Origin: Streptomyces sp. SPB162
GTDB lineage: Bacteria; Actinomycetota; Actinomycetes; Streptomycetales; Streptomycetaceae
Assembly (NCBI RefSeq): GCF_029504575.1
Contig: NZ_JAQFII010000001.1
Coordinates: 1,140,501-1,204,500 of the forward strand
DNA: 64,000 bases
Direction: 5' to 3'
Positions 1,789-16,971 of the stretch are shown here, piece after piece. Made by a program: the position numbers and the translations under genes. A model generated the notes under the pieces. It was not told the DNA's origin and did not search any database. It saw nothing but the letters and a program-made list of their open reading frames with translations. Positions within the stretch are counted from its first letter, which is position 1. Every line of letters begins with the position of its first letter.

Positions 1789-3582
1789 TTGCCCTCTTCC
1801 TCCCCCAGCAGCAACACCGACGGATACGACCTCGTCCTGCGCCTCCTCCTCGGCGGGCTCGCCGTCGTCGTCCCCCTGTCCCACCTGGCCTGGCTGTCCG
1901 GCAACATCACCGCCTACCTCACCGGCACCAACTGGGCCCCCTACCAGCCGACCAACGCCCTGCTCCACCCCGAGCAGGTCTGGTCCGGCGCAGGAGAAAC
2001 GTCCCTGCTGATCGGCGCCCGCATCGTCCCCGTTCTCCTTCTCCTCGCCCTCGGGGCGGGGGCGGGCTTCCTATGGGCTCGCCACAAAAACCGGAGCAGC
2101 GGCAAGAAGACGAAGATCACCGACATGGCCAAGGCCCGGGACATCGAGCCACTGATGGCCAAGGCGGTCACCGACAAAGCCCGCTCCCTGCGCCCCAGCT
2201 TGAAGGACAGCAAGCACATCGACGCGAAGGACACCGGCATCCTCCTCGGCAACCTGCAGGACAGCCGCCACGAGGTACGGATGGGGTTCGAGGACGTCGC
2301 CGTCGCGATCATGGCGCCCCGTTCCGGTAAGACCACCTCGCTCGCCATCCCCTCCATGCTCGGCGCGCCGGGCCCGGTCCTGCTGACGTCGAACAAGGCC
2401 GCCGGCGACGCCTTCACCACCACGTACGAGGCAAGGGCCCAGGCGGGGACGGTGTGGACCATGGACCCGCAGCAGATCGCGCACGCCGCCCGCGAGATGT
2501 GGTGGAACCCCCTCGCCAGCGCGAAAACCCTGGACGGGGCGAACCGGCTCGCCGGACACTTCCTCGCCGCCTCGGTGGACGCCTCCCAGCAGGGCGACTT
2601 CTGGTCGAAGGCCGGCAGCAACATCCTCTCCCAGCTTCTCCTGGCGGCAGCGCTCGACGAGCGGCCCATCACCGACATCATGCAGTGGCTCGCCTTCCCC
2701 GCCGACCGCACTCCGCTGGACATCCTGCGCGACCACGACGTCGCCGCCGTCGCCGCGCAGCTCAAGGGCACCGTCGAGGGGCCCCCGGAAACGAGGGACG
2801 GCATCTACGAGACCGCCCGGCAGTACGCCTCCGCCCTCCTGAACGTGGAAATCGCCGCGTGGGTCACCCCGCAGAAGGATGTCCCGGAATTTCGGCCGGA
2901 GCAGTTCGTCAGGTCCACCGACACGCTGTTCCTGCTCAGCAAGGACGGCGGCGGCGGAGCCTCGGCGTTGATCGCCGCGTGCGCAGATTCGGTGATGCGG
3001 GCCGCGACCGCCCAGGCCGAACGTGCTGGCGGGCGCCTGGATCCGCCCATGCTGGCGATCCTCGACGAGGCCGCCAACGTGTGCAAGATCAGCGACTTGC
3101 CAGATCTGTACTCTCACCTCGGCAGCCGCGGGATCATCCCGATCACGATCCTGCAGTCCTACCGTCAGGGCCAGAAGGTCTGGGGAGACACGGGTATGGA
3201 CGCCATGTGGTCCGCCTCGACCGTCAAGGTGATCGGCAGCGGCATCGACGACCCCGACTTCGCCGACAAGCTCAGCCGCCTGATCGGCGACCACGACGTG
3301 CAGACCACGTCCACCTCGCACTCGGAGTCCGGCAAGAGCACGTCAGTGTCGATGCGGCAGGAACGGATCCTGCCTGCCGACGCGATCCGCGCTCTGCCCA
3401 AGGGCACCGCGCTCTGCTTCGCCACCGGCATGCGCGCCGCCATGCTCGACCTCCGGCCGTGGTACCGGGAGCCCGGCGCGGAGGAACTGTCCGCGGCGTC
3501 CGCCCGCGCGTCGCAAGCGATCACCGCCCGCGCCGTGGCGAAGCACGCGCCGACGCAGGACGACTTCGGGCTGGCCACGTGA
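1789..3582 (+). CDS. VirD4/TraG-like type IV coupling ATPase
   Basis: The 597-aa protein probably couples DNA to a conjugation channel. Two hydrophobic helices near the N terminus (about residues 18-40 and 82-103) anchor it in the membrane. A cytosolic motor follows, with a Walker A APRSGKTT near residue 176, a Walker B MLAILDEAAN near residue 425, and a TraM-recognition-like region (GSRGIIPITILQSYRQG). TTG at 1789 is the only start close to the upstream in-frame stop; the next candidate would remove the membrane part. The end overlaps the methyltransferase start by 4 bp. Streptomyces conjugation usually relies on an FtsK-like TraB; this is the VirD4/TraG type. No relaxase is visible. Confidence 0.8.
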   Translation: MPSSSPSSNTDGYDLVLRLLLGGLAVVVPLSHLAWLSGNITAYLTGTNWAPYQPTNALLHPEQVWSGAGETSLLIGARIVPVLLLLALGAGAGFLWARHKNRSSGKKTKITDMAKARDIEPLMAKAVTDKARSLRPSLKDSKHIDAKDTGILLGNLQDSRHEVRMGFEDVAVAIMAPRSGKTTSLAIPSMLGAPGPVLLTSNKAAGDAFTTTYEARAQAGTVWTMDPQQIAHAAREMWWNPLASAKTLDGANRLAGHFLAASVDASQQGDFWSKAGSNILSQLLLAAALDERPITDIMQWLAFPADRTPLDILRDHDVAAVAAQLKGTVEGPPETRDGIYETARQYASALLNVEIAAWVTPQKDVPEFRPEQFVRSTDTLFLLSKDGGGGASALIAACADSVMRAATAQAERAGGRLDPPMLAILDEAANVCKISDLPDLYSHLGSRGIIPITILQSYRQGQKVWGDTGMDAMWSASTVKVIGSGIDDPDFADKLSRLIGDHDVQTTSTSHSESGKSTSVSMRQERILPADAIRALPKGTALCFATGMRAAMLDLRPWYREPGAEELSAASARASQAITARAVAKHAPTQDDFGLAT

Positions 3583-4850: not shown

Positions 4851-5961
4851 TGCCCCACGCCCCCGAACCTGACGAAGACGGCTTCGACGCAACACCACCC
4901 CAGCCGGTGTTCCACGTCGAGCAGGCCCTCCTCGGCGCACTCCTTCTCGAGCCGCACCGTCTCGGCGACGTGACCGGCATCGCCGCTGACTCCTTCTCTA
5001 CCGCCGCGCACGCCGCCCTGTTCGCCGCAATCAGCACACTGCCTCCGCCCGACCCGGCCGAGCACGCGAAGAACGCCAATTGGCTCGTCCGCGTGCTCGC
5101 CACGGGTCAGGAGCAGGCGCGCGGGCTGACCGCCTCGTACCTGCACACCCTCGTCCAGGTCTGTCCATGGCCCCGTCACGCACCGGCTTACGGATGGTCG
5201 AGGCCGAACATGCCCGTCGCCGTCTGCAGACAGCCGCCGAACGCCTCGTCCAGACCGTCCACGATGACTCCCTCCCGCACGCCGTGCAGGCGGTGCTCGC
5301 CGAGGCCGACGCGCTCGCCGCGGTCGTGGACGACATCGCAGCCAGATTCCCACCGCGCGCAGGCGTGCTGCCCCGCACCGCGGCACCATCGCCGCCAGTC
5401 GCGCCCGACTACATGGAGGCGGTCGAGGAGGAGCAGATGCTGCTCGCGACCGCCACCGCCAACCCTGCCGACATCGAATCCGCCCGGTGGCTACTACCCG
5501 ACGACCTCACCCTGCCCTTGCACGCCGGCCTGTGGCAGTGCCTGACCGCCCTGGCCCGCCGCCGCGAGCCCGTCGACCCAGTCACCGTCCTGTGGGAGGC
5601 CCAACAGCGCGGCCTGCTCGACGACGGAAGCGAACCGGGCGAGGTGCTCCACCTGCTGGCCGAACCGGCCGGTTCCGTGGAGCACTGGGGCGAGCGCGCA
5701 CTGCAACGCTCCCTGCTGGCCACCGCCGATCACACCGGCCGACGCATCGAGGCGTACGCCGGCGACACGGCGAACACGCCGTTCCAGCTCGTCGTCGGCG
5801 CCCGCCGTTCCCTCGCCGACATCGGCGCCGTCCGCACCCGCTGGCAGCACGCCACCGGAACGGTCCCGACGCCGCAACCGCGACCGGCGCCCACCACCCG
5901 TGCCGGCCCGCCAACCACGACGGTCGCGTACACCGGCCGCGTCGCGCGAGCAACCCGATAG
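4850..5961 (+). pseudogene. Protein with two DnaB-N-like domains, broken by one frameshift
   Basis: The ATG at 4850 overlaps the methyltransferase stop. Frame 2 gives a DnaB N-terminal-like domain (VFHVEQALLGALLLEPHRL...). Near 5190 the reading must move to frame 1, where RMVEAEHARRRLQTAAERL follows and a second DnaB-N-like unit appears (EEEQMLLATAT... WLLPDDLTLPLHAGLWQCL). No helicase core (Walker A) is present in either part. An ATG at 5167 could start the second part separately (264 aa). A single indel restores one protein of about 370 residues. The break may be real or a sequencing error. The DnaB N domain normally mediates ring assembly and primase contact. Confidence 0.65.
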
Positions 5962-6277
5962 CACCCCGCATACACGCCTGCACGGGCCGGCCGCAGTCCG
6001 GCTGCCGCACGCAACGGCGGCGTTTGACCACTGCACGACTACGGACGGATGGTTCGGTAGAGCGCGAGCGGGATGCAGCCCTCTCGCCAAGACGACCTGC
6101 ACACGCCTGCACCGTGGCCCGCAGGTTTCGCGCGATTGCCGTGCTGCGCGGTGGACTGTATTTGAGATGCCGGTGCGTTCCACTTCTTGATCAGAAGAGT
6201 GAACTTTGTATAGGCTCCTCGATACGGTGTGTGACGCCTGGGGAACATCCTGTGTGCAGCCGCCGAGGGGGTGGGTT
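5962..6277. other. 316-bp gap with the likely promoter of the ABC-3C operon
   Basis: No convincing gene is seen here. The overlapping open frames lack family signatures and ribosome sites. The last 90 bp hold a promoter-like sequence described separately. The gap separates the transfer genes from the defence operon and probably marks a transcription-unit boundary. Confidence 0.5.
6183..6214 (+). promoter_or_regulatory. Candidate promoter with overlapping inverted repeat
   Basis: A -35-like TTGATC (6187-6192) and a -10-like TATAGG (6209-6214) are separated by 16 bp, about 65 bp before the first ABC-3C gene. A perfect 5-bp inverted repeat, CTTCT-tgatc-AGAAG (6183-6197), covers the -35 box and could bind a regulator. 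Its AT content stands out from the surrounding sequence. Confidence 0.4.
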
Positions 6278-7258
6278 GTGCCTGACTCGATAGCCGTGCC
6301 GACGGGTGTCCAGCCAATCAGCTTCGACGTGCACGCAGTCCGCGGAGGAAGCCCCGGCGGAGCTCGCGACGACTTTGAAACGATGATCGCTCAGCTTGCC
6401 GCCGCGACGACCCCAAACGTACGATCCGTCGCTGCCAACCCGGGCGACTGGGGTATCGACGCTTTCGCCGGGAACCTCGGCGGAGCGATCACAGTGTGGC
6501 AGTCCAAGTACTTCATGCCGGTCACCACCAAGAAGCACATACAGCAGGTCAAAGACTCGCTCGACAACGTGCTGAAGGCAGCCGTCACGAACGGCCACAC
6601 CATCGCCAGCTGGATTCTGTGCATCCCATCCAGCATGGACGGCCCCATGACGGCATGGTGGGACACGTGGACGAAGGCGAGGGAGAAGGAACACAACCTC
6701 GTCATACAGCTCTGGGACGAGACCGCCCTCCGGAAGAAGCTGCTTAGCCCCGAGGGCGACGACGTGCGTCGCGGCTTCTACGAGACGTACGCTCAGGCCG
6801 CCCCCACCCCCGCCCCCGGGGAACAGCTTCGGCTGGTACACGAAGTCGAGGACGACAAGGCAGCCACCCTTGGCTCCGCCTTGTTCATTCGGCAGATGAC
6901 CGAGGCCGGCCACGTGGAGCTGGACTCGGCCAAGAGGCAGTTCTTCAATGCCGATCTGGTGGCTCGCGAGATCGCGCACAAGGACGTTCCGGCGGAGGTG
7001 GCGGCGCTCAGTTCCGCCGATGCGACGCTCCACGGTCTATGGGAGATGCAGTTCAACGAATGCGCGGCCGAGGACGCGCTTCGGGTTCTCCACACCCGTG
7101 TCTGGCGGGATGTACGCAACGAGCACGACAAACTGCCGAAGTCGCTCCGCCTCGAGCTGGTGCACAGCTGGGGGCTGGTCCACCGGCTCGTGGACAACCG
7201 CAAGGCGGGCTGGGTCAAACACTGGCGGCAGATCGCCGCCGAGCACTCCGACGGCTGA
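6278..7258 (+). CDS. ABC-3C system effector-type protein with Mrr-like nuclease domain
   Basis: The 326-aa protein has a restriction-endonuclease-fold N-terminal part: GDWGIDAF near residues 56-63 followed by VWQSKYF near 73-79. This gives the D...QxK arrangement seen in Mrr-like nucleases, with Gln replacing the usual Glu. The C-terminal 120 residues are helical and resemble the C-terminal domains that link effectors to ABC-three-component systems. GTG 6278 has a GAGGGGG site 6-7 bp upstream; an in-frame TTG at 6206 is poorer. It is the first gene of an operon with a middle component and an SMC-like ATPase. Likely role: DNA cleavage on activation by the ATPase during invasion (inferred). Confidence 0.65.
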   Translation: MPDSIAVPTGVQPISFDVHAVRGGSPGGARDDFETMIAQLAAATTPNVRSVAANPGDWGIDAFAGNLGGAITVWQSKYFMPVTTKKHIQQVKDSLDNVLKAAVTNGHTIASWILCIPSSMDGPMTAWWDTWTKAREKEHNLVIQLWDETALRKKLLSPEGDDVRRGFYETYAQAAPTPAPGEQLRLVHEVEDDKAATLGSALFIRQMTEAGHVELDSAKRQFFNADLVAREIAHKDVPAEVAALSSADATLHGLWEMQFNECAAEDALRVLHTRVWRDVRNEHDKLPKSLRLELVHSWGLVHRLVDNRKAGWVKHWRQIAAEHSDG

Positions 7259-7298
7259 CCGCCGTCGCCTGTCCTGCCAGACCTACGAGGAGTTCGCT

Positions 7299-7877
7299 GT
7301 GGAAGCACACCGGCCGGTGATGATGCCGGAGGACGAGGTGACCTTCCGCCTGGCGCAGCTGCTGCTTCTTCTCGACGCCGTCGCCAGACAGGACGCCAAG
7401 GGGGCGAGCCTGGAGCGCCTCGGCTACTACGACTTCCTGTCGGCGAACCCCTTCCTCGTCGTCGATTCCGACGGCCGGGAGGGCAACATGCTCAGGCTGG
7501 CCGGCTTCGATCCGCAGGTGCTCTCGTACGCGTCCTCCTCACAGCGCTTCACCAGTCGACGCGAGCGCATCCAGCACGACCTCGGACTGCTCGTGGCTTA
7601 CGGGTGTTGCGAGGTCCACAACCGCAACGGCGCCTTCGCCTATTCGATCAACAACCGCGGTCGGGAACTCGGGGCTCGCTTCACCGCCACCTACGCCGCG
7701 TCGTTCACCACTGCGGCGTCCATCGTCGTGCGTCGCCTCCGCAAGCTCAGCGACAAGGCGCTGCGGGAACAGACCGCACGGTGGCTGCGGCCGGATGGCG
7801 AGGGCGGCCCTGGTGCCGCGCTCCTCAGCGTGCTGGGACTAGGACCGCAGGCACCTGACATGCCCTGGGAAGGATGA
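7299..7877 (+). CDS. ABC-3C system middle component
   Basis: The 192-aa protein starts at GTG 7299, preceded by GAGGAG with 6-7 bp spacing. It has a helical start (RLAQLLLLLDAVA), an LERLGYYDFLSANPFLV block, and a basic helix-turn-helix-like middle ending in AYSINNRGRELGARF. These features fit the small winged-helix middle component that joins the ABC ATPase to the effector in ABC-three-component systems. It lies 40 bp after the effector, and its stop overlaps the ATPase start (ATGA), which is strong evidence for coupled translation. It is unlikely to be an enzyme. Confidence 0.65.
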   Translation: MEAHRPVMMPEDEVTFRLAQLLLLLDAVARQDAKGASLERLGYYDFLSANPFLVVDSDGREGNMLRLAGFDPQVLSYASSSQRFTSRRERIQHDLGLLVAYGCCEVHNRNGAFAYSINNRGRELGARFTATYAASFTTAASIVVRRLRKLSDKALREQTARWLRPDGEGGPGAALLSVLGLGPQAPDMPWEG

Positions 7878-9889
7878 CCACCATGCAGCCGCTGCCTGGC
7901 ATCCGGATCCGGCGCCTGCGCCTTGCTGGCGTCAGCCGGAACTATGACGTCGATTTCACGCAGGACCAGCGGGTGCGGGGCCTGTCCGTGGTGGCCGGGG
8001 CATTCAGCTCGGGCAAGACCGCGGTGTTGGAGTTCATCGCCTACGGCCTCGGAGGGAAGCGCCATCCACGGCATCCTGAGGTGCTGCGGAAGGTCCGTTC
8101 CTGCCTTCTGGAAGTCGAGCTGTCCGGGGAACCGCACGTCATCGAGCGGCCCGTCGGGGAACCATCGAAGGTCGCCTACGTACGCCGTGGGACGCTGGAC
8201 AGCCCGCCGCTCTCCAAACCTGAGAGCAGGACCATCGAGCCGGCGGGAGCGCCCGAGAGCCTTTCCGCTCTGCTGCTGGGGCACTGCAAGCTCGAAGGCG
8301 TTCAGCTGCGGGAGGCCCCCTCCAGCCGTGAGTCCCGGACCGACCCCCTGAGCATCCGCGACCTCATGAACCTCGCGTTCCTGCCCAACGAGCGCATCGC
8401 CTCCAAGAACTTCCTGTTCGAGAACGAGTACATGAAGAAACACAAGCTGAAGCAGGTGGTCGACGTCGTCTTCGGCGTTCACGACGACCGCGCCGTCGAG
8501 CTTGGGCAACGCATCAAGGAACTGGGCGCCCGACTCACCCAGGCACGCTCCGAACTCGCCGCAGCACGGGCGTTCGTCGACGAGCAGGACGTTCCCACGG
8601 TCGGCGCGCTGATCGCTGAGCAATACGAAGGCGAGCTGCGGGAGCTGACCGAGCAGCTACGGGCCCTCGACGAGGCAGCGCAAGCCGGCACCACCTTCGC
8701 CGGGCGTCTGCGCCGCGAGCACCAGCAAGCGGCCCAGCGCGCCCGGCGAGCCGCTGGCGTGGTACGTGACTGCGAGACGCAACTCACCCGGATGATGCCG
8801 CTGCGGGCGCAGTACGCGGACGACCTCGTCAAGCTCAACATGCTGGCCGAAGCGCAGCGCCTGTTCGATCCCCTCAGCGTCACGACCTGCCCGGCGTGCC
8901 TGAATCGGCTGCCCGCTCCCCCGTCGGTGGAGAACGGCTCGTGCAGTCTGTGCAGCCACGAGCTGCCCCACGACGACAGGCACCTGACGCTCGGCACCGC
9001 CACAGCCGAGCACGCGTCGGATGAAGGACGGCTGGATGTCGCGGCGGAGATCAGAGCCACCAAGGCCCGTTTGAAGGAGATCACTGCCTACGTTGAGGGC
9101 CTGGACAGCTCGCTCGCCACGTTGAAGCTCCAGGCAGAAAACGCCGCCATCGACGAAGAACGTGCCGCAGCCGCGGTCGACGAAGCCACTTCGCCCACCG
9201 TCACCCCGTTCCTCGCCGCTCGCGACAGCCTCCAGCGCCGACGCGAAGAAGTCCTCCGGCATCTCCAGCACGCCGAGAACGCCACGAAGCTTCAGGCTGG
9301 CCTGGAGAAGCGCGCCGCGCTCGTCGAACGGCAGGAGACACAGATCGAACGACTGCGGGAGGAACGCGACCGGCTGGGAGATGCCGCACAGGACCGGGAC
9401 CTGGTCGTCGGCCGAATCAGCGGCCGGTACAGCGAACTCCTGCGGCAGTGGCGCTACCCGAAACTCAGCCAGCCGATGATCGACACGAATCTGGTTCCTC
9501 ACGTACGCGGCGACTCCTACCGCGAGGCGTCATCCGGCGCCCGGACACTCCTGACCCTGGCCTGGCAGCTGGCCGTCTTCGAGGTGGCCGTCGAAACATC
9601 GGCCGCCCACCCCGGCTTCCTCATGATCGACAGCCCGCAGAAGAACCTGGGCCACGGCGGTACCCGGGACGCGGTAATCGCAGACGCGATCGCCATCGAC
9701 GACTTCTACCGCCACCTGACCAGCTGGCTGACTGAACAAGGGGCGGGTGCCCAGGTGATCATCGTCGACAACAGTCCGCCCGCGCTCGTGGAAGAGAACG
9801 TCGTGGTCCGGTACAGCCGCAACGAGGACCGCCCTCCCTACGGGCTGATCGACGACGAGACCACTACAGACGAAGGCAGCCCCGAATAG
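7874..9889 (+). CDS. SMC/Rad50-like ABC ATPase of an ABC-3C system (DUF3732-like)
   Basis: The 671-aa protein has an ABC ATPase head split by a coiled coil with a zinc hook. Walker A GAFSSGKT is at residues 42-49. The Arg/Glu/Ala-rich coiled coil spans about 195-520, with the hook cysteines CPAC (339-342) and CSLC (357-360) at its centre. The signature-like SSGARTLLTLAW lies near 552, Walker B GFLMIDSPQKN near 581-591, and a terminal VIIVDNSPP strand follows. This matches DUF3732-type ABC-3C ATPases. ATG 7874 overlaps the preceding stop; ATG 7883 is better spaced from the GGAAGG site and may be the true start. It probably senses nucleoprotein structures and controls the nuclease partner. Confidence 0.75.
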   Translation: MTTMQPLPGIRIRRLRLAGVSRNYDVDFTQDQRVRGLSVVAGAFSSGKTAVLEFIAYGLGGKRHPRHPEVLRKVRSCLLEVELSGEPHVIERPVGEPSKVAYVRRGTLDSPPLSKPESRTIEPAGAPESLSALLLGHCKLEGVQLREAPSSRESRTDPLSIRDLMNLAFLPNERIASKNFLFENEYMKKHKLKQVVDVVFGVHDDRAVELGQRIKELGARLTQARSELAAARAFVDEQDVPTVGALIAEQYEGELRELTEQLRALDEAAQAGTTFAGRLRREHQQAAQRARRAAGVVRDCETQLTRMMPLRAQYADDLVKLNMLAEAQRLFDPLSVTTCPACLNRLPAPPSVENGSCSLCSHELPHDDRHLTLGTATAEHASDEGRLDVAAEIRATKARLKEITAYVEGLDSSLATLKLQAENAAIDEERAAAAVDEATSPTVTPFLAARDSLQRRREEVLRHLQHAENATKLQAGLEKRAALVERQETQIERLREERDRLGDAAQDRDLVVGRISGRYSELLRQWRYPKLSQPMIDTNLVPHVRGDSYREASSGARTLLTLAWQLAVFEVAVETSAAHPGFLMIDSPQKNLGHGGTRDAVIADAIAIDDFYRHLTSWLTEQGAGAQVIIVDNSPPALVEENVVVRYSRNEDRPPYGLIDDETTTDEGSPE

Positions 9890-10219: not shown

Positions 10220-12403
10220 GTGCATCTGAGCCGAGTTGCGGTGAGCGGTCTGCGCGCGAGCGCAGAGACTCTCATGACGTGCGACCTTCCCGGCAGGTTC
10301 AGTGTGCTGATCGGCGCCAACGGCGCCGGCAAGACGACGCTCACGGACGCGCTCTATCTCGCGCACCCTGGAAGCCGGTTTCCCGTGCTTCCAAGACCGA
10401 CATCAGCCGTACTGGCACCCCCTGATACCGGCGTGGAGCGCAGCATCGGCATCACCTACGCGCTGGGAGAAGACCTCGAAGCGGAAGGGCGGCTTGGCCG
10501 CGAGCTTCACACCACTGGCCACCGGCGTCTCGGCGGAGACGCTGAATCCTGGAGAGTCTCACTGCAGCCACAGCTGGGAAGCGTCACCTCCCGGCTGGAC
10601 ATCAACCACGGGCTTGCCCCGAAGCTGGACAACTTCAAACTGATATACCTGCCCGCTTGGCGGCACCCGCTGGACGAACTGGCCCGACGCGAGGCACGCA
10701 TCCTGGTCGAGTTGCTACGGGCGCGCCAGCAGGAACTCCACGGCAGCCGCAACCTGGTGGCTCTACGAGCCCGCGCCTCCCGGCTGCTGGAGGACCTTGC
10801 CAAAGACAGTCTGATCGACGCCGTGGAAGCGCGAATCGGCGAACATCTGGGCAGGCTCTCCGCCGGAGTAAGTCCTCAGTGGCCATACATCCGAGGCCAA
10901 GTCATCGACGACACGTACCTTGCGCGTGTCCTGGAGGTCATGCTCGCCGTCGTCGAAGGCCGCTCCGAGGCCCGTCCTCTGGAGGTCTCCGGGCTGGGGT
11001 ATGTGAACCTGCTTCATATCGCGGTGATGTTGGCAGCGATACCCGATTCTACGGAAGTTCCCGTCACCATTCCGGACCCGTCCGGGGGGCGCGGAGACGG
11101 AGAGGTTCTCTCTGAGGAGGAGCAGGCCCGGCAGGCGTCCGAGAACCAGGTCCAAGCACAGGCCGAGGCAGCAGCGGAGGAAGACTCCTTCTTCTCCACG
11201 GCCCCCTTCCATGCAACGCTCGTCATCGAAGAGCCCGAAGCGCACCTCCACCCCCAGTTGCAGCACTCGCTGGTCCGCTACCTGCGCAGGACCGTCAAGT
11301 CGCGACCTGAACTGCAAGTGATCCTCTCCAGTCATGCGACCGACGTCATCACCGCCTGCGACCCGGAGGAACTCGTGGTCGTACGCCGCACACACCAGGG
11401 AAGCATCAGCCGGTGTGTGAAAGACGTCGTCCCTCGCCAGCATCGCGAGGCCACGCTGCGCATGACCAGACTGCACCTCGACGCCAGCCGTTCATCAGCG
11501 CTCTTCGCTGAACGGCTGCTCCTGGTGGAGGGGGTGACAGAAGGCGCCGTGGTACGCGAGTTCGGCCGGGCCTGGGCTGCCGACGATGACACGAAGCAAG
11601 CCTTCATTGATGCCCTGAGCATCGTACCTATGGGCACCAAGGTCGGTCAGTGGGCTGTCCGTCTCCTGGCTACCTCCGGGGCAGAGCTGTGCACGAAGCT
11701 GGCCGTCCTCCGTGACAGCGACAGCGACACGCCCTTCGACAGTGCACGGGACTCGCCCAAGTGGCTTGCCGAGCACGATCCAGCGATCGTCCAAGCCTTC
11801 ATCAGCCACCCCACGCTGGAGCCGGCCATCACCCCGGGCAATGAGCATCTCATCGCAGCCGCCCAGCAAGCTGTCGACCCGGAGCACCCGCTGGCCGAAG
11901 TCACCGTCGAGGCTGTCCGCGCCTACTTCGGGAGCCGGCGGGCGGGCAAGGACGGTGAGGAAAGCCTCAAGGAAGGGCGAGGCGCCCGGCGAAAGGCTGA
12001 GTTCGCCCTGACGCTCGCCGCCCTGTTGCGCGACGCCACGGATACCGATCGCCAGTTGGCTGGCGGACTCACATCCGTCCGCGTGCCCGACCACCTCAGG
12101 AACCTCTTCGACTTCCTCTACCCAGCTGCCCCAGAGTCTGTTGCTACAGATTTCGCGATCGACGAGGGCGTCACGGAACCGCCCAACTGGCTTGCTCCGG
12201 ACAGCATCTGGGATGAAATGCCAGAGGATATCGAGTGGCCCGAGCTCGAAGAATCGGCTTTCTGGCAGGACCACGAACCCGAACCGGTGAAGGAAGAGCC
12301 CGAGCCGGCAATCGGCGATGCCGAGGAGGCAATGGGCTGGGATGATCTGCTCCTCGCCCGTCCGACGCAGGATGAGCTGCACCCCGTTTCGTGGAGTCCA
12401 TGA
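10220..12403 (+). CDS. OLD-family ATP-dependent nuclease (Gabija GajA-like), C terminus replaced by IS sequence
   Basis: The 727-aa protein has an ABC-type ATPase followed by a TOPRIM nuclease. Walker [10 protein letters not shown] is at 32-40. The Walker B/signature strand [12 protein letters not shown] lies near 336. An SSHATDV motif follows, then the TOPRIM glutamate in LLLVEGVTE (E437) and the acidic RDSDSD near 498. Two acidic, low-complexity linkers are present. GTG 10220 has a GGGGGAT site 7 bp upstream. The last nine residues (ELHPVSWSP) are encoded by the left inverted repeat of the IS3 element. Without the insertion the frame would continue 29 codons to a TAA at 13765-13767, overlapping the helicase start. 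The truncation may spare the catalytic parts. Confidence 0.75.
12370..12372. repeat. Left copy of GGA target-site duplication
   Basis: GGA directly precedes the left inverted repeat and is repeated immediately after the right one. Confidence 0.65.
12373..12399 (+). repeat. IS3 left terminal inverted repeat (27 bp)
   Basis: It begins TGAGCTGCACCCC and ends GTGGAGTCC. Compared with the reverse complement of 13650-13676, 23 of 27 positions match. Confidence 0.85.
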
Positions 12404-12444
12404 AGCCAGGCTTATGATCCTGGCTCGAAGGAGAACCACGAGCT

Positions 12445-12756
12445 GTGCCAGCACCACGTAAGTACCCGGACGAGCTCCGCGAGCGGGCCGTCCGCGAGGT
12501 CCGCACCTCCGGCCGTCCGATCGCGCATGTCGCGAAGGACCTGGGCATCCACAAGGAGGCCCTGCGTGGCTGGGTCCGCCAAGCCGAGGCGGACACCGGT
12601 GAACGCGACGACCGGCTGACCACCGCCGAACAGGAAGAACTGAGGCAACTTCGCCGGGAAAACGCGGAGTTGAGGCGGGCAAACGAGATCCTCAAAGCCG
12701 CGAGCGCGTTTTTTGCGGCCGAACTCGACCGTCCCCGGACGAGGCCGACGAGGTGA
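12445..12756 (+). CDS. IS3-family transposase OrfA (DNA-binding subunit)
   Basis: The 103-aa protein starts at GTG 12445 after a GAAGGAG site. An N-terminal helix-turn-helix (RERAVREV... IAHVAKDLGIHKEALRGWV) binds the IS ends, and a leucine-zipper-like helix follows (EELRQLRRENAELRRANEIL). The frame runs over a T6G tract (12709-12715) where a -1 slip would give the OrfAB transposase. It ends four bases into orfB. Confidence 0.9.
   Translation: MPAPRKYPDELRERAVREVRTSGRPIAHVAKDLGIHKEALRGWVRQAEADTGERDDRLTTAEQEELRQLRRENAELRRANEILKAASAFFAAELDRPRTRPTR
12709..12715 (+). other. Probable -1 programmed frameshift site (T6G)
   Basis: Six T residues followed by G lie near the 3' end of orfA, upstream of the overlap with orfB. 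Reading T-TTT-TTG and slipping back one base moves ribosomes from the orfA frame into the orfB frame, as known for IS3 elements. Confidence 0.6.
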
Positions 12757-13637
12757 TCGAGCATCTCAGGAACAAGGGCCTCGGGGTCGGGTTCGCCTGC
12801 CGGGTGCTGGGGCTGTCGGAGTCGGCGTACTACGCGCGCAAGAAGCGGCCGAAGTCGGCACGCCGGCTGCGCGACGAGCAGGTCATGCCGCTGATCGAAC
12901 AGGTTCATGCCGAGTCCGGCGGCACCTACGGCGTTCGCCGGATCACCCGCGCGCTCAAGCGCAAGGGTGTGCAGGTGGCCCGCTGCACCGTCGAGCGGCT
13001 GATGGACGAGCTGGGCCTGGAGGGCGTCATCCGCGGTCAGCGGCGGCGGACCACTGTGCCGGAGCCGTCGGCACCCAGGCCGCCAGACCTGGTCGACCGC
13101 GACTTCACAGCCTCGCGGCCGGATCAGCTGTGGGTGGCGGACATGACGTATGTGCGCACCTGGTCCGGCTGGGCATACGTGGCGTTCGTCCTGGACGTGT
13201 ACTCGCGGATGATTGTCGGCTGGCAGGTCGCGAATCACATGCGGACCGAACTGCCGTTGGACGCACTGGAGATGGCGTTGTGGAGACGCCGGATCAAGAA
13301 GGACTCCGGTCTCATTCATCACAGCGACCGCGGGTCGCAATACGTATCAATTCGGTATACCGAGAGGCTGTCCGAGATCGGGGCTTCAGCCTCGGTCGGC
13401 TCGGTCGCGGACAGCTACGACAACGCGATGGCCGAGGCCCTGAACGGCACCTTCAAGGCCGAGCTGATCGAGATGCAAGGACCGTGGCGGGACGTTGACC
13501 AGGTGGAGCGGGCGATCTTCCAATGGGTCACCTGGTACAACGAGGAACGGCTCCACTCCGCCCTCGACTACGTACCGCCTGCCGAGTACGAACGCGAGTG
13601 GTGGCGACAACAGGAAGCCAACCCGCAGTCCGCCTGA
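12753..13637 (+). CDS. IS3-family transposase OrfB (DDE catalytic subunit)
   Basis: The 294-aa integrase-type catalytic protein has an HTH_21-like N-terminal region (GGTYGVRRITRALKRKG) and an rve domain. The catalytic triad is visible: Asp in WVADMTYV, Asp in HHSDRGSQY, and Glu in NAMAEALNGTFKAEL. The C terminus has the typical WYNEERLHSALDYVPP block. It is probably expressed as an OrfAB fusion by -1 frameshifting. All motifs are intact, so the element may still be active. Confidence 0.92.
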   Translation: MIEHLRNKGLGVGFACRVLGLSESAYYARKKRPKSARRLRDEQVMPLIEQVHAESGGTYGVRRITRALKRKGVQVARCTVERLMDELGLEGVIRGQRRRTTVPEPSAPRPPDLVDRDFTASRPDQLWVADMTYVRTWSGWAYVAFVLDVYSRMIVGWQVANHMRTELPLDALEMALWRRRIKKDSGLIHHSDRGSQYVSIRYTERLSEIGASASVGSVADSYDNAMAEALNGTFKAELIEMQGPWRDVDQVERAIFQWVTWYNEERLHSALDYVPPAEYEREWWRQQEANPQSA

Positions 13638-13649
13638 AACAAGATCACC

Positions 13650-13676
13650 GGACTCTACGAAACTCGGGGCAGCTCA
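13650..13676 (-). repeat. IS3 right terminal inverted repeat (27 bp)
   Basis: Read on the minus strand it begins TGAGCTGCCCCG and ends GTAGAGTCC, matching the left end at 23 of 27 positions. Confidence 0.85.
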
Positions 13677-13679
13677 GGA
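13677..13679. repeat. Right copy of GGA target-site duplication
   Basis: GGA follows the right inverted repeat directly, matching the left flank. Removing one copy plus the element rejoins the nuclease frame. Confidence 0.65.
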
Positions 13680-13759
13680 GGATCACGCGGTACGGCGCGA
13701 TCCTGGAGGATGGCCCACACGAGTGCAGGTACCCGGGCAATGGCCGGGAGCACAGAGCA

Positions 13760-15241
13760 ATGCTTAAGCCGAGGGCGGGAGTCAACGCCCTGACGCCACG
13801 ACAGCTCATGGCCAGCGGCAGTCCGCACGGCCGCGTGTACGTGGAAGCCGAGCCGGGCTCGGGAAAGACCACGGTGTCGGCCTTCCGCTTCGGACTGCAC
13901 CGCTTTGCTGGCACCACCGACAGACGGGCCGTCGTAGCTGTCAGCTTCACACGCTCAGCCACCGAGGAGCTCCGGGCCCGCGTCATCCGGCACTGGGGCC
14001 TGTCATCAGTGACCTGGCCACACCGCATCGTCACCCTGGACACCCTGCTATGCGACCTTCTCTTCCATCTCCTTCAAAAGGGTGTCCTTCAATGGCCGGG
14101 AGGACACACCGACCTTGAGGTCCTGGATACCTGGCGAACGGCCCTCCCCGGGAAACCCGGGCGCATAAGACCCGTTCTGAGAGTCGACAGCGGACAGGTC
14201 GTCATCAGAACCATCAACGAGTCTCAGTCCGCGAGCCACCCCTCGGTCACGGACTTCATGACAGCGGTCTCCGCGGGCAGGTGCACACACGATAACGTCC
14301 GGGAAGCTCTGCAAGGAGCCCTGGCAACCCGCGTGGGAAGGGAAACCCTCACCTCATATTTGGAGAGCACCGTGCGTTCACTGACAGTGGACGAGGTGTT
14401 CGACGCTAACGACCTGGACAGGGACATCTTGTCGCTCGCCGCGTCAGGATGCAGATCACTCACCCTGGTCGGAGACCCCTGGCAAGCCCTCTACCAGTTC
14501 AGAGGCGCACGTCCCGCAGCGATGACCACCTACATCAGCGAGAACGGCTTCACCACACATCATCTGGACGAATCATTCCGGTGGGGAAGCGACAGGCAGG
14601 CGTCACTCACGAGGCAGCTGCGCCAGCGGATGCCAGTGGAACTGCCGCCAGGTTTCGCTCAGGACGCAGATGTGGTCATTGCGCATAAATGGAAGACACT
14701 CTGGGAGGCGGACCCACACGTACTCCCCCTGGCGATCAGGCCTGGCGTAGGGCAAGCCCAGGAAGCGATATGCACACTGCTCCTCAACGAGATCACCCAG
14801 CGCGCGCTCGGGTTGCAGGCAGTGTTTCTGCACGACGCCTTGGCCACGCTGGGACTGGAAAAAGAGGATCTAGTGACAACTCTCCACCCCTGCCTGCAGA
14901 CTGCCATCTTTCATCTGAAGGACGGCGCTCGGCCTCGGCAAGTATGGGAGAGCCTCGCAGACAGCCTGGCCGATCTCATTCCGGCGCTTGCTGCACAACG
15001 GTACGCACGCAAACCTCTCCTCGCACTGAACCGTCTACAGCTGCGGCTCGAAGATGACCAACTCGTGCCTGGACTGACATGCCACCAGTCCAAAGGCCGA
15101 GAGTGGAACACAGTGGCAATTAAGCTGAGCAGCTCAGACGCTTCGGCCCTGAAGCTCGGCCTCGATCCAACGCAGGCAGACCATCGGGCCCTCTACGTGG
15201 CACTCACGCGCGCGCGCCTGGGCACCGTGGCCCTCACATGA
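13760..15241 (+). CDS. UvrD/PcrA-like superfamily 1 helicase (Gabija GajB-like)
   Basis: The 493-aa protein carries SF1 motifs in order: motif I AEPGSGKTT near 30, Ia VAVSFTRSATEELRARV, II VDEVFDAN near 211, III LTLVGDPWQALYQFRGA, IV ESFRWG, V HQSKGREWNTVAI, and VI YVALTRARLG. Motif II has Phe where UvrD helicases have Gln (DExQD). ATG 13760 has GGGAG upstream. With the IS removed, the nuclease frame would stop at 13767, overlapping this start by 8 bp, as in a coupled operon. The length is close to known GajB proteins. The IS now separates it from its promoter. Confidence 0.75.
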   Translation: MLKPRAGVNALTPRQLMASGSPHGRVYVEAEPGSGKTTVSAFRFGLHRFAGTTDRRAVVAVSFTRSATEELRARVIRHWGLSSVTWPHRIVTLDTLLCDLLFHLLQKGVLQWPGGHTDLEVLDTWRTALPGKPGRIRPVLRVDSGQVVIRTINESQSASHPSVTDFMTAVSAGRCTHDNVREALQGALATRVGRETLTSYLESTVRSLTVDEVFDANDLDRDILSLAASGCRSLTLVGDPWQALYQFRGARPAAMTTYISENGFTTHHLDESFRWGSDRQASLTRQLRQRMPVELPPGFAQDADVVIAHKWKTLWEADPHVLPLAIRPGVGQAQEAICTLLLNEITQRALGLQAVFLHDALATLGLEKEDLVTTLHPCLQTAIFHLKDGARPRQVWESLADSLADLIPALAAQRYARKPLLALNRLQLRLEDDQLVPGLTCHQSKGREWNTVAIKLSSSDASALKLGLDPTQADHRALYVALTRARLGTVALT

Positions 15242-15686: not shown

Positions 15687-16859
15687 TCACCTTGGGTCAC
15701 TCCGGGGGAAGGGGTCGCCGGTCGGCCAGCGTTCCGGCAGACCGAGAGCGGTGTGGACGGAGCGAATCGCGGACCGACGCTCGACCTGGATCCCAGCCAG
15801 TTGCGCGGTTGCCCAGGTAGGGAAGGTGGGGGGAGGAAGCGAGGCGGGGTCCGGGCTTTGCCAGAGAACGGGAGTGTTTTTCGTCCAGGTCCAGGGTGCT
15901 GGGTTGTTCACGACGAGCACGCCGCTGACACGGCTGTGGGCATGGTCGTAGGTGGCAGTCCAGTAGCCATCGGGCTTTCGGCTGAAGGTCGATCCGCTTT
16001 CGTAGGCGTACTCGACGGTACTCCCGTACAGCGCTCTCTCGATGTCCTCATCTTCGGGGAAGTCGGCTGCATGGCCTACCGCCACGATGAATGGCAGCTC
16101 CAGGTCACCGTACTTCCCGCCCTTGTGTGTGACGGCGTGGAGCACTCGCTCCGATCCGTCCTCGACCGCCCATGCCGAGGAGTAGACGCCGATTGTCCTG
16201 CAAGAGGGATTGCCACGTTTGCCTGGGCTGCGGGGGATCGCTTGAAACGTGAGGCACCAGCCAGCCTCTTGCCAAGAGTGACGGGGAAGCGGCACCTTGC
16301 GCTCATGGTCGGCGATGACCTGATCGGGGTCCAAGCTTGCCAGCCATCGCGTCAGCTCGGACTTCAGCCGTCTCTGCGGCGGCGTTGCCGTACCCGCGCT
16401 GCGGAGTTCGCACGATACGAAGAAGTTCGGACTCGGCAAGCGATCGATGGCATCGCTCAACTGCGGTGGAAGCGAGTAGGACCCAGCTTCGCGCTTCTGA
16501 GCCTTCCAGATCGCCTCGACGACGAACTGCTCGTTGCCGCGAGTAACCAGGAAGTCGGGCCTATAGCCACCTGTTCCCGTTTGCCGCTCAACCTCCACGC
16601 TGCAACCGGAACCGCGCAACATCTCGTGCAGATACAACTCCCACAGCGCAGAGTAGACATTCGTGTCGGAGTTTCGATCCCCCAGCCGGCTGAGCAGGCC
16701 GGGTTGAGCCTGGCCAGGGAAGCGCAACCACCATTCGTTGATCACATCCCGAACCTGGTCCCAAAACGGACCGGCGACCCTCTCGAAGAACTCGGCCTGT
16801 GGCTCGGCCGCCCGCTTCGGCGCCGTATCCGTCCGATTCCGGTTCGCGTATACACCCAT
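15687..16859 (-). CDS. Uncharacterised protein with nuclease-like motif
   Basis: The 390-aa soluble protein is read opposite to the defence genes. ATG (complement of 16857-16859) has AGGAT 8-9 bp upstream; the frame stays open to 16934 without conserved sequence. Residues 75-130 hold a segment with YSALWELYLHEMLRGSGC, then GYRPDFLV and FVVEAIWKAQ. This recalls PD-(D/E)xK nucleases (PDF, then Glu), but the spacing to Lys is unusual (ExxxK), so activity is unproven. The C-terminal half is Trp/Pro-rich and unrecognised. Its location beside defence systems suggests another defence gene (inferred). Confidence 0.55.
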   Translation of the reverse strand: MGVYANRNRTDTAPKRAAEPQAEFFERVAGPFWDQVRDVINEWWLRFPGQAQPGLLSRLGDRNSDTNVYSALWELYLHEMLRGSGCSVEVERQTGTGGYRPDFLVTRGNEQFVVEAIWKAQKREAGSYSLPPQLSDAIDRLPSPNFFVSCELRSAGTATPPQRRLKSELTRWLASLDPDQVIADHERKVPLPRHSWQEAGWCLTFQAIPRSPGKRGNPSCRTIGVYSSAWAVEDGSERVLHAVTHKGGKYGDLELPFIVAVGHAADFPEDEDIERALYGSTVEYAYESGSTFSRKPDGYWTATYDHAHSRVSGVLVVNNPAPWTWTKNTPVLWQSPDPASLPPPTFPTWATAQLAGIQVERRSAIRSVHTALGLPERWPTGDPFPRSDPR

Positions 16860-16971
16860 GACAGATGATCCTAGTTCGCTCCGCGGGACATTCTCCTTCC
16901 TTTTCCACTGCGTCCCGACGACCAAAGGGCTCAACCGGGTCAGCCGTTGTCAACCCTTCCCTGCCCCCGTT

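What the first reader, a model, noticed from the sequence alone, without database searches (positions are those of the whole stretch)
10220..15241. Gabija-like nuclease/helicase pair split by an IS3 insertion, with a reconstructable overlap
An OLD-type ATPase/TOPRIM gene and a UvrD-like gene flank a complete IS3 element with a GGA duplication. Removing the element and one GGA extends the nuclease frame 29 codons to a TAA at 13765-13767, overlapping the helicase ATG by 8 bp. Seen in sequence: the element ends, the duplication, and the frame continuation. Inferred: a formerly coupled class 2 OLD/Gabija operon. Gabija naming rests on gene pairing; both proteins may belong to a distinct OLD subtype.
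Basis: partly seen in the sequence, partly recalled or inferred. Interest (0 to 1): 0.78.

Follow-up and report, generated by a model that had tools for sequence, protein, structure and literature searches.

The report
Gabija phage-defence operon split by IS3
A common two-gene bacterial anti-phage system has been split by a mobile DNA element that cut off the loose end of the first protein and separated the two genes; the history is clear, but the event is ordinary.

Summary
A 1,304-bp IS3-family element (12373-13676), flanked by GGA, sits in the 3' end of a class 2 OLD/GajA gene, directly before gajB. Uninterrupted relatives exist. In the two closest (GajA 80% and 78% identical) the gajA tail lines up without a gap with the window's severed piece beyond the element (14 and 13 of 28 residues; 0 of 100,000 shuffles). 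Their gajB ATG overlaps the gajA stop by 8 bp, exactly as in the window; so do 10 of 16 relatives read. GajA and GajB profiles match strongly, so 'Gabija' rests on more than gene pairing. The insertion removes only the end of a variable acidic tail that one relative lacks almost wholly; the ATPase, the readable part of the TOPRIM site and the helicase motifs are intact, and gajB keeps an open frame and a Shine-Dalgarno-like GGAG. Most likely the insertion uncoupled gajB from gajA and weakened the system without destroying either enzyme; this was not tested. The operon lies in a lower-GC island with conjugation genes and a Lamassu system. Damage recurs in relatives: IS elements in 2 more loci, frameshifts in 2. 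Known system, known event.

The parts
10220..12403 (+). gajA-like gene (class 2 OLD: ABC ATPase + TOPRIM), 727 aa as it stands; the last 10 residues ([10 protein letters not shown]) are read into the IS end
   Evidence: PADLOC GajA 3.4e-43; Pfam AAA_15 and AAA_21 and, below its cut-off, OLD-like TOPRIM; TsOLD 6p74 2.7e-14 and BcGajA 4.7e-4 with the family profile
12370..12372 (.). left copy of the GGA target duplication
12373..13676 (+). IS3-family element, 1304 bp, ends TGAGCTG...CAGCTCA; no second full copy found in the held genome
12445..12756 (+). IS3 OrfA (HTH_Tnp_1)
12753..13637 (+). IS3 OrfB (rve integrase core), -1 frame relative to OrfA
13677..13679 (.). right copy of the GGA target duplication
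13681..13767 (+). severed 3' end of gajA (28 codons + TAA), holding the GxWP motif of the family tail
   Evidence: 14/28 and 13/28 residues match L025 and L026
13760..15241 (+). gajB-like gene (UvrD-like SF1), 493 aa, start overlaps the severed gajA stop by 8 bp
   Evidence: PADLOC GajB 4.3e-32; Pfam UvrD-helicase 1.6e-19
6206..9889 (+). Lamassu system beside it (LmuA 6206-7258, ABC-3C middle component ending 7877, LmuB 7874-9889): context, not part of Gabija
   Evidence: LmuA 4.8e-103, LmuB 2e-237; MC2 6e-10

Best explanation
This is a Gabija (GajA-GajB) anti-phage operon of an actinobacterial branch. Before the insertion gajA was about 746 codons long and its stop overlapped the gajB start, so the two were probably translated in a coupled way. 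One IS3-family element then inserted, in the direction of transcription, into the codons of GajA's acidic C-terminal tail, with a GGA duplication. GajA lost its last 29 residues and gained 10 at the IS end; gajB was left whole, with its own start and a GGAG, but 1.36 kb downstream of the new gajA stop and behind a transposase gene. Shown: the anatomy and, by comparison with relatives, the pre-insertion state. Inferred: GajA still folds and cuts; GajB is made in smaller and unbalanced amounts, from readthrough; the 4:4 complex needed for defence is therefore reduced. My split for the outcome: weakened or off 0.6, still working 0.4.
For: Ungapped homology of the severed piece to intact relatives and the same 8-bp overlap. 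IS ends fixed by other copies. Walker A (GANGAGKTT), Walker B ([12 protein letters not shown]), E437/E441 and D499-x-D501 are present in the window; K38, E337/E338, E437, D499 and D501 are invariant in the 13-sequence alignment, while E441 is D in some. GajB Walker A and DEVFD box are present. L063 GajA stops 12 residues after the conserved DFLY, so the tail is dispensable in at least one relative. dN/dS against L025 is 0.18 (gajA) and 0.17 (gajB); in the test against L026 with L027 as outgroup the window's branch is not faster (gajA 32:34, gajB 19:25). Literature, passages only: both proteins are needed in vivo while GajA alone cuts in vitro (PMC10681800, PMC10568477); GajA-GajB interface mutants lose much of their defence (PMC10781630).
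Against: The functional step has no direct evidence. The dN/dS and relative-rate figures mostly reflect time before the insertion and cannot show selection since. With L026 as outgroup gajA gave 72:28 unique changes (window:L025, chi2 19.4), although L026's GajA is closer to L025 and so a poor outgroup. No promoter-like and no terminator-like site was found at 12200-13900, so neither IS-driven expression nor a transcription stop is supported. 11 of 15 other full IS copies show no 3- or 4-bp direct repeat at their ends.
Confidence: 0.85

Rival explanations
1. The system still works: the lost tail is not needed, and the co-directional IS transcript plus gajB's own ribosome site supply enough GajB.
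For: Catalytic motifs present; relative L063 with almost no tail; GGAG 9 nt before the gajB ATG (read), no terminator-like site found at 12200-13900; both frames open.
Against: The WP motif at the end of the tail is kept in 13 of 18 relatives with a readable gajA end and is lost here; no promoter-like site found in the element.
Confidence: 0.4
2. The locus is a decaying pseudo-system on its way out, as in several relatives.
For: Of 20 loci (window + 19), 5 carry a lesion: IS3 here, IS4 in L011 gajA, IS5-like in L036 with no gajB found, a 2-bp contraction in L028 gajB, an apparent frameshift in L007 gajB.
Against: In the window no further lesion was seen in either gene; the two frameshifted relatives could be sequencing errors.
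Confidence: 0.3
3. The IS insertion is a reversible on/off switch of the system.
For: The insertion site is flanked by a clean GGA repeat.
Against: IS3-family elements are known (recalled) to move by copying through a circle, so exact loss is rare; no strain of this species with an empty site was available.
Confidence: 0.03

Closest known systems
Gabija of Bacillus cereus VD045 (GajA 8jq9/8sm3, GajB 8jqb/8tjy)
   Same: OLD-type ATPase/TOPRIM protein and a UvrD-like partner; the stretch from Walker B to the TOPRIM glutamate, and the helicase core, align
   Different: GajA was about 170 residues longer (746 inferred against 578) with an acidic tail; similarity is weak (E=1.4e-3 single sequence); an IS3 element separates the genes; the helicase box reads DEVFD, where BcGajB is described with DEXQD
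Class 2 OLD nucleases (B. pseudomallei, X. campestris)
   Same: OLD nuclease next to a UvrD/PcrA/Rep-like gene, which defines the class (passages of PMC10568477); HPTLEP here may correspond to T506/E508 of BpOLD (inference; BpOLD residues from PMC10822852)
   Different: no alignment to BpOLD was obtained
Class 1 OLD, Thermus scotoductus (6p74)
   Same: best PDB match of the nuclease (2.7e-14)
   Different: class 1 stands alone; here a helicase gene follows
Streptomyces IS3-family elements (e.g. on NZ_CP107842.1, 93.7%; NZ_CP109103.1, 92.9%)
   Same: match over the full 1304 bp
   Different: other locations

Membership tests
Gabija (class 2 OLD + UvrD-like) | GajA-type ABC ATPase + TOPRIM protein | tested here: met
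   PADLOC GajA 3.4e-43; Pfam AAA_15 8.5e-17, and OLD-like_TOPRIM 0.0013, below its cut-off
Gabija (class 2 OLD + UvrD-like) | TOPRIM glutamate pair and DxD | tested here: met
   E437/E441 align with LLIEGPSE of BcGajA; D499-x-D501 invariant in the 13-sequence alignment, but its match to D432/D434 of BcGajA is by order, not by a PDB alignment
Gabija (class 2 OLD + UvrD-like) | remaining active-site residues (D511, D513, K541 of BcGajA, from PMC10822852) | tested here: inconclusive
   conserved T532/E534 and K592 are candidates, but no PDB alignment reached them and the AlphaFold model failed (pLDDT 35.9)
Gabija (class 2 OLD + UvrD-like) | helical insert in the TOPRIM domain that marks class 2 (PMC10568477 passages) | not tested
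   no usable structure model
Gabija (class 2 OLD + UvrD-like) | GajB-type UvrD-like partner next door | tested here: met
   PADLOC GajB 4.3e-32; adjacent and overlapping in relatives; in the window an IS lies between
Gabija (class 2 OLD + UvrD-like) | GajA-GajB complex and phage protection | not testable with these tools
   needs protein and phage assays
IS3-family insertion sequence | OrfA + OrfB (rve) in -1 frame | tested here: met
IS3-family insertion sequence | terminal inverted repeats starting TG | tested here: met
   TGAGCTG...CAGCTCA, shared with other copies
IS3-family insertion sequence | short (3-4 bp, recalled) target duplication | tested here: met
   GGA on both sides in the window; 3 or 4 bp repeats in 4 of 15 other full copies with both flanks
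PARIS (AriA-AriB) | AriA ATPase with a separate AriB effector | tested here: not met
   AriA models score lower (best 1.6e-17) than GajA, and the partner is UvrD-like
Class 1 OLD | single gene without helicase partner | tested here: not met
   gajB follows

The most novel reading that the evidence does not exclude
Actinobacterial Gabija carries an extra acidic GajA tail ending in a GxWP motif that controls GajA (for example by touching GajB as it is made from the overlapping start). The IS insertion would then have turned a coupled pair into an uncoupled nuclease plus an IS-driven GajB, a natural experiment on whether coupling and tail matter for defence.
Probability: 0.1. Interest if true: 0.45.

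Novelty: new member of a known kind. Interest (0 to 1): 0.25.

Why it matters
It gives a clear natural case in which a two-gene defence system lost its gene overlap and the end of its nuclease while the recognisable catalytic motifs stayed whole. Together with the other lesions in relatives (5 of 20 loci, two of them possibly sequencing errors) it suggests that this branch of Gabija is often broken, as expected if it is costly (inference). It also warns annotators that a Gabija pair with transposase genes between its members may be missed.

Tried and rejected
AlphaFold2 of the window's GajA with six sequences failed (mean pLDDT 35.9, pTM 0.25); I discarded it, ran no fold search and did not use the second job. 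Promoter and terminator scans of 12200-13900 found none (the scan covers sigma-70-type sites only). PARIS, class 1 OLD and retron OLD were considered and rejected. I looked for a Lamassu beside the relatives' Gabija in part only: 6 proteins of L025/L026 and 2 of L027 gave no Lamassu match, so the Gabija-Lamassu pairing is not shown to be general. Paper searches (listings and abstract beginnings; 15 shown of 167, 19 of 19, 15 of 711, 15 of 19 and 15 of 24) showed no report of an IS-split Gabija in this group; PMC9148166 (passages) describes GajA and GajB separated by another coding sequence in Xylella. Own genome included, gajB was found in 3 of 35 genomes of the genus, gajA in 13 of 394 of the family and 5 of 394 of the class. 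A first count of IS flank repeats used misplaced ends in some copies and was redone.
Full report
gajA runs from GTG 10220 to TGA 12401-12403 and gajB from ATG 13760 to 15241. Between them lies an IS3-family element whose OrfA and OrfB match the IS3 transposase model. To fix its ends I compared it, with 60 bp of window flank added, with the 19 copies held as loci L038-L056 (pieces under 900 bp were not printed): 16 aligned over the full element and stopped within 6 bp (left) and 10 bp (right) of 12373 and 13676; 3 were partial. The element is 1,304 bp, begins TGAGCTG and ends CAGCTCA. No second full copy was found in the held genome; the other match there is 66 bp at 76%. A match at E<=1e-100 was found in 49 of 394 genomes of the family, own included, and on plasmids up to 93.7% over the whole length. 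GGA flanks the window's copy. Of 15 other full copies with both flanks readable, 3 have a 3-bp and 1 a 4-bp direct repeat (L038 has 2 bp); 10 show none.

The pre-insertion state was tested on relatives. Six gajA loci came from the species collection and twelve more from genomes of the family. The two nearest, L025 and L026, have GajA 80% and 78% and GajB 77% and 72% identical to the window's. Their gajA genes are uninterrupted, 746 and 748 codons. The window's 717 codons before the element plus 29 after it make 746. The severed piece (28 residues) matches 14 of 28 in L025 and 13 of 28 in L026 with no gap; none of 100,000 shuffles reach these, and the two other reading frames give 1 to 3.

The overlap is also real. 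In 10 of 16 relatives read the gajB start codon overlaps the gajA stop by exactly 8 bp (7 ATG, 3 GTG); in 5 the overlap is 14 or 17 bp; in L028 no start was listed because its gajB is frameshifted. In the two class relatives it is 4 bp (L062) and 11 bp (L063). L036 has no gajB. The window's ATG 13760 and TAA 13765-13767 give 8 bp.

What the proteins are. PADLOC models: GajA 3.4e-43, GajB 4.3e-32. The family profile finds TsOLD (6p74, 2.7e-14) and BcGajA (4.7e-4) for the nuclease, and UvrD (1.1e-18) and GajB (4.1e-15) for the helicase. The class 2 OLD definition, an OLD nuclease beside a UvrD/PcrA/Rep-like gene, and its equation with GajA come from passages of PMC10568477. Motifs present: Walker A and B, TOPRIM E437/E441 and D499-x-D501 (BcGajA residues from passages of PMC10822852 and PMC10781630), and GajB Walker A and DEVFD. 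Only the E437/E441 region was aligned to a solved TOPRIM domain; the rest is by order and conservation. The Q of the DEXQD box is F here and F or Y in the other 12 sequences of the alignment.

What was lost. The cut falls in the acidic tail after the TOPRIM domain. The tail varies in length; L063 has 12 residues after the conserved DFLY. A WP motif (mostly GxWPT) near its end occurs in 13 of 18 relatives with a readable gajA end: 13 of 16 (absent from L030, L031, L032) and neither of the 2. It lies in the window's severed piece (GGWPT), so the present GajA lacks it. Its role is unknown.

Consequence. GajB is required for defence in vivo although GajA cuts alone in vitro (passages), and interface mutations markedly reduce defence. 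So the level of GajB probably matters. Here gajB starts 1.36 kb after the new gajA stop. It has a GGAG nine bases before its ATG (sequence). The IS points the same way, and no terminator-like or promoter-like site was found at 12200-13900. I judge impairment somewhat more likely than full function (0.6 to 0.4); this is inference.

Selection. dN/dS is 0.17-0.18 against L025 for both genes. Relative-rate counts of window against L026 with L027 as outgroup are even (gajA 32:34, gajB 19:25). Window against L025 with L026 as outgroup gave gajB 39:29 (chi2 1.5) and gajA 72:28 (chi2 19.4); for gajA L026 is nearer to L025 than the window is, so it is not a fair outgroup. These numbers cover mainly the time before the insertion.

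Wider pattern. Of 20 loci (window plus 19), 5 carry a lesion: IS3 here; an IS4-family transposase in L011 gajA; an IS5-like transposase right after codon ~435 in L036 with no gajB in the locus; a 2-bp contraction of a CA run in L028 gajB against its 98.7% identical sister L027; and an apparent frameshift in L007 gajB, a draft genome (a DNA comparison with L008 gave no alignment). The last two may be sequencing errors.

Context. The operon lies in a stretch of lower GC (0.63-0.67 from 6 to 18 kb, against 0.70-0.77 in most bins from 20 kb on, with two bins of 0.67-0.68) with a TraG/TraD-type coupling protein (1789-3582), a DnaB-type N-terminal domain (5080-5961), and a Lamassu system directly upstream; a gene at 15690-16934 on the other strand weakly matches PD-T7-5 (4.9e-9). 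Of six proteins scanned in the 19.5 kb before the window, one is NlpC/P60 and none is an integrase. I read it as defence cargo of a conjugative element (inference). The host is in the family of Streptomyces but in a different genus group (g1) from the Streptomyces relatives (g9): G226's contig has the length of the S. toxytricini record, which identifies g9.

Verdict: correct and well observed, explained, and ordinary in kind.

Noticed in passing
window 1789-3582, 5080-5961, 6206-9889: Conjugation coupling protein, DnaB-type domain and a Lamassu system with LmuA, ABC-3C middle component and LmuB just upstream: the Gabija lies in a lower-GC defence island, probably mobile.
   Followed up: partly
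window 15690-16934 (-): 415-aa protein weakly matching PD-T7-5 (4.9e-9) and PD-T7-1 (5.3e-5), no Pfam match at 0.001: possible further defence gene.
   Followed up: no
L011 3845-7584: gajA of a relative interrupted near codon 240 by an IS4-family transposase on the other strand.
   Followed up: partly
L036 6231-7114: gajA of a relative ends at codon ~435 in an IS5-like element; no match to the rest of gajA or to gajB in the locus.
   Followed up: partly
L028 gajB against L027: 2-bp contraction in a CA repeat shifts the gajB frame in one of two 98.7% identical loci; could be repeat slippage.
   Followed up: partly
GajA tails of relatives: A WP motif (mostly GxWPT) near the end of an otherwise variable acidic tail, in 13 of 18 relatives.
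   Followed up: partly
GajB alignment A5, window residues 211-215: The helicase box reads DE(V/I)(F/Y)D in the 13 sequences aligned, where BcGajB is described with DEXQD.
   Followed up: no
L038-L056: 11 of 15 full copies of this IS with both flanks readable lack a 3- or 4-bp direct repeat at their ends, hinting at rearrangement between copies.
   Followed up: partly
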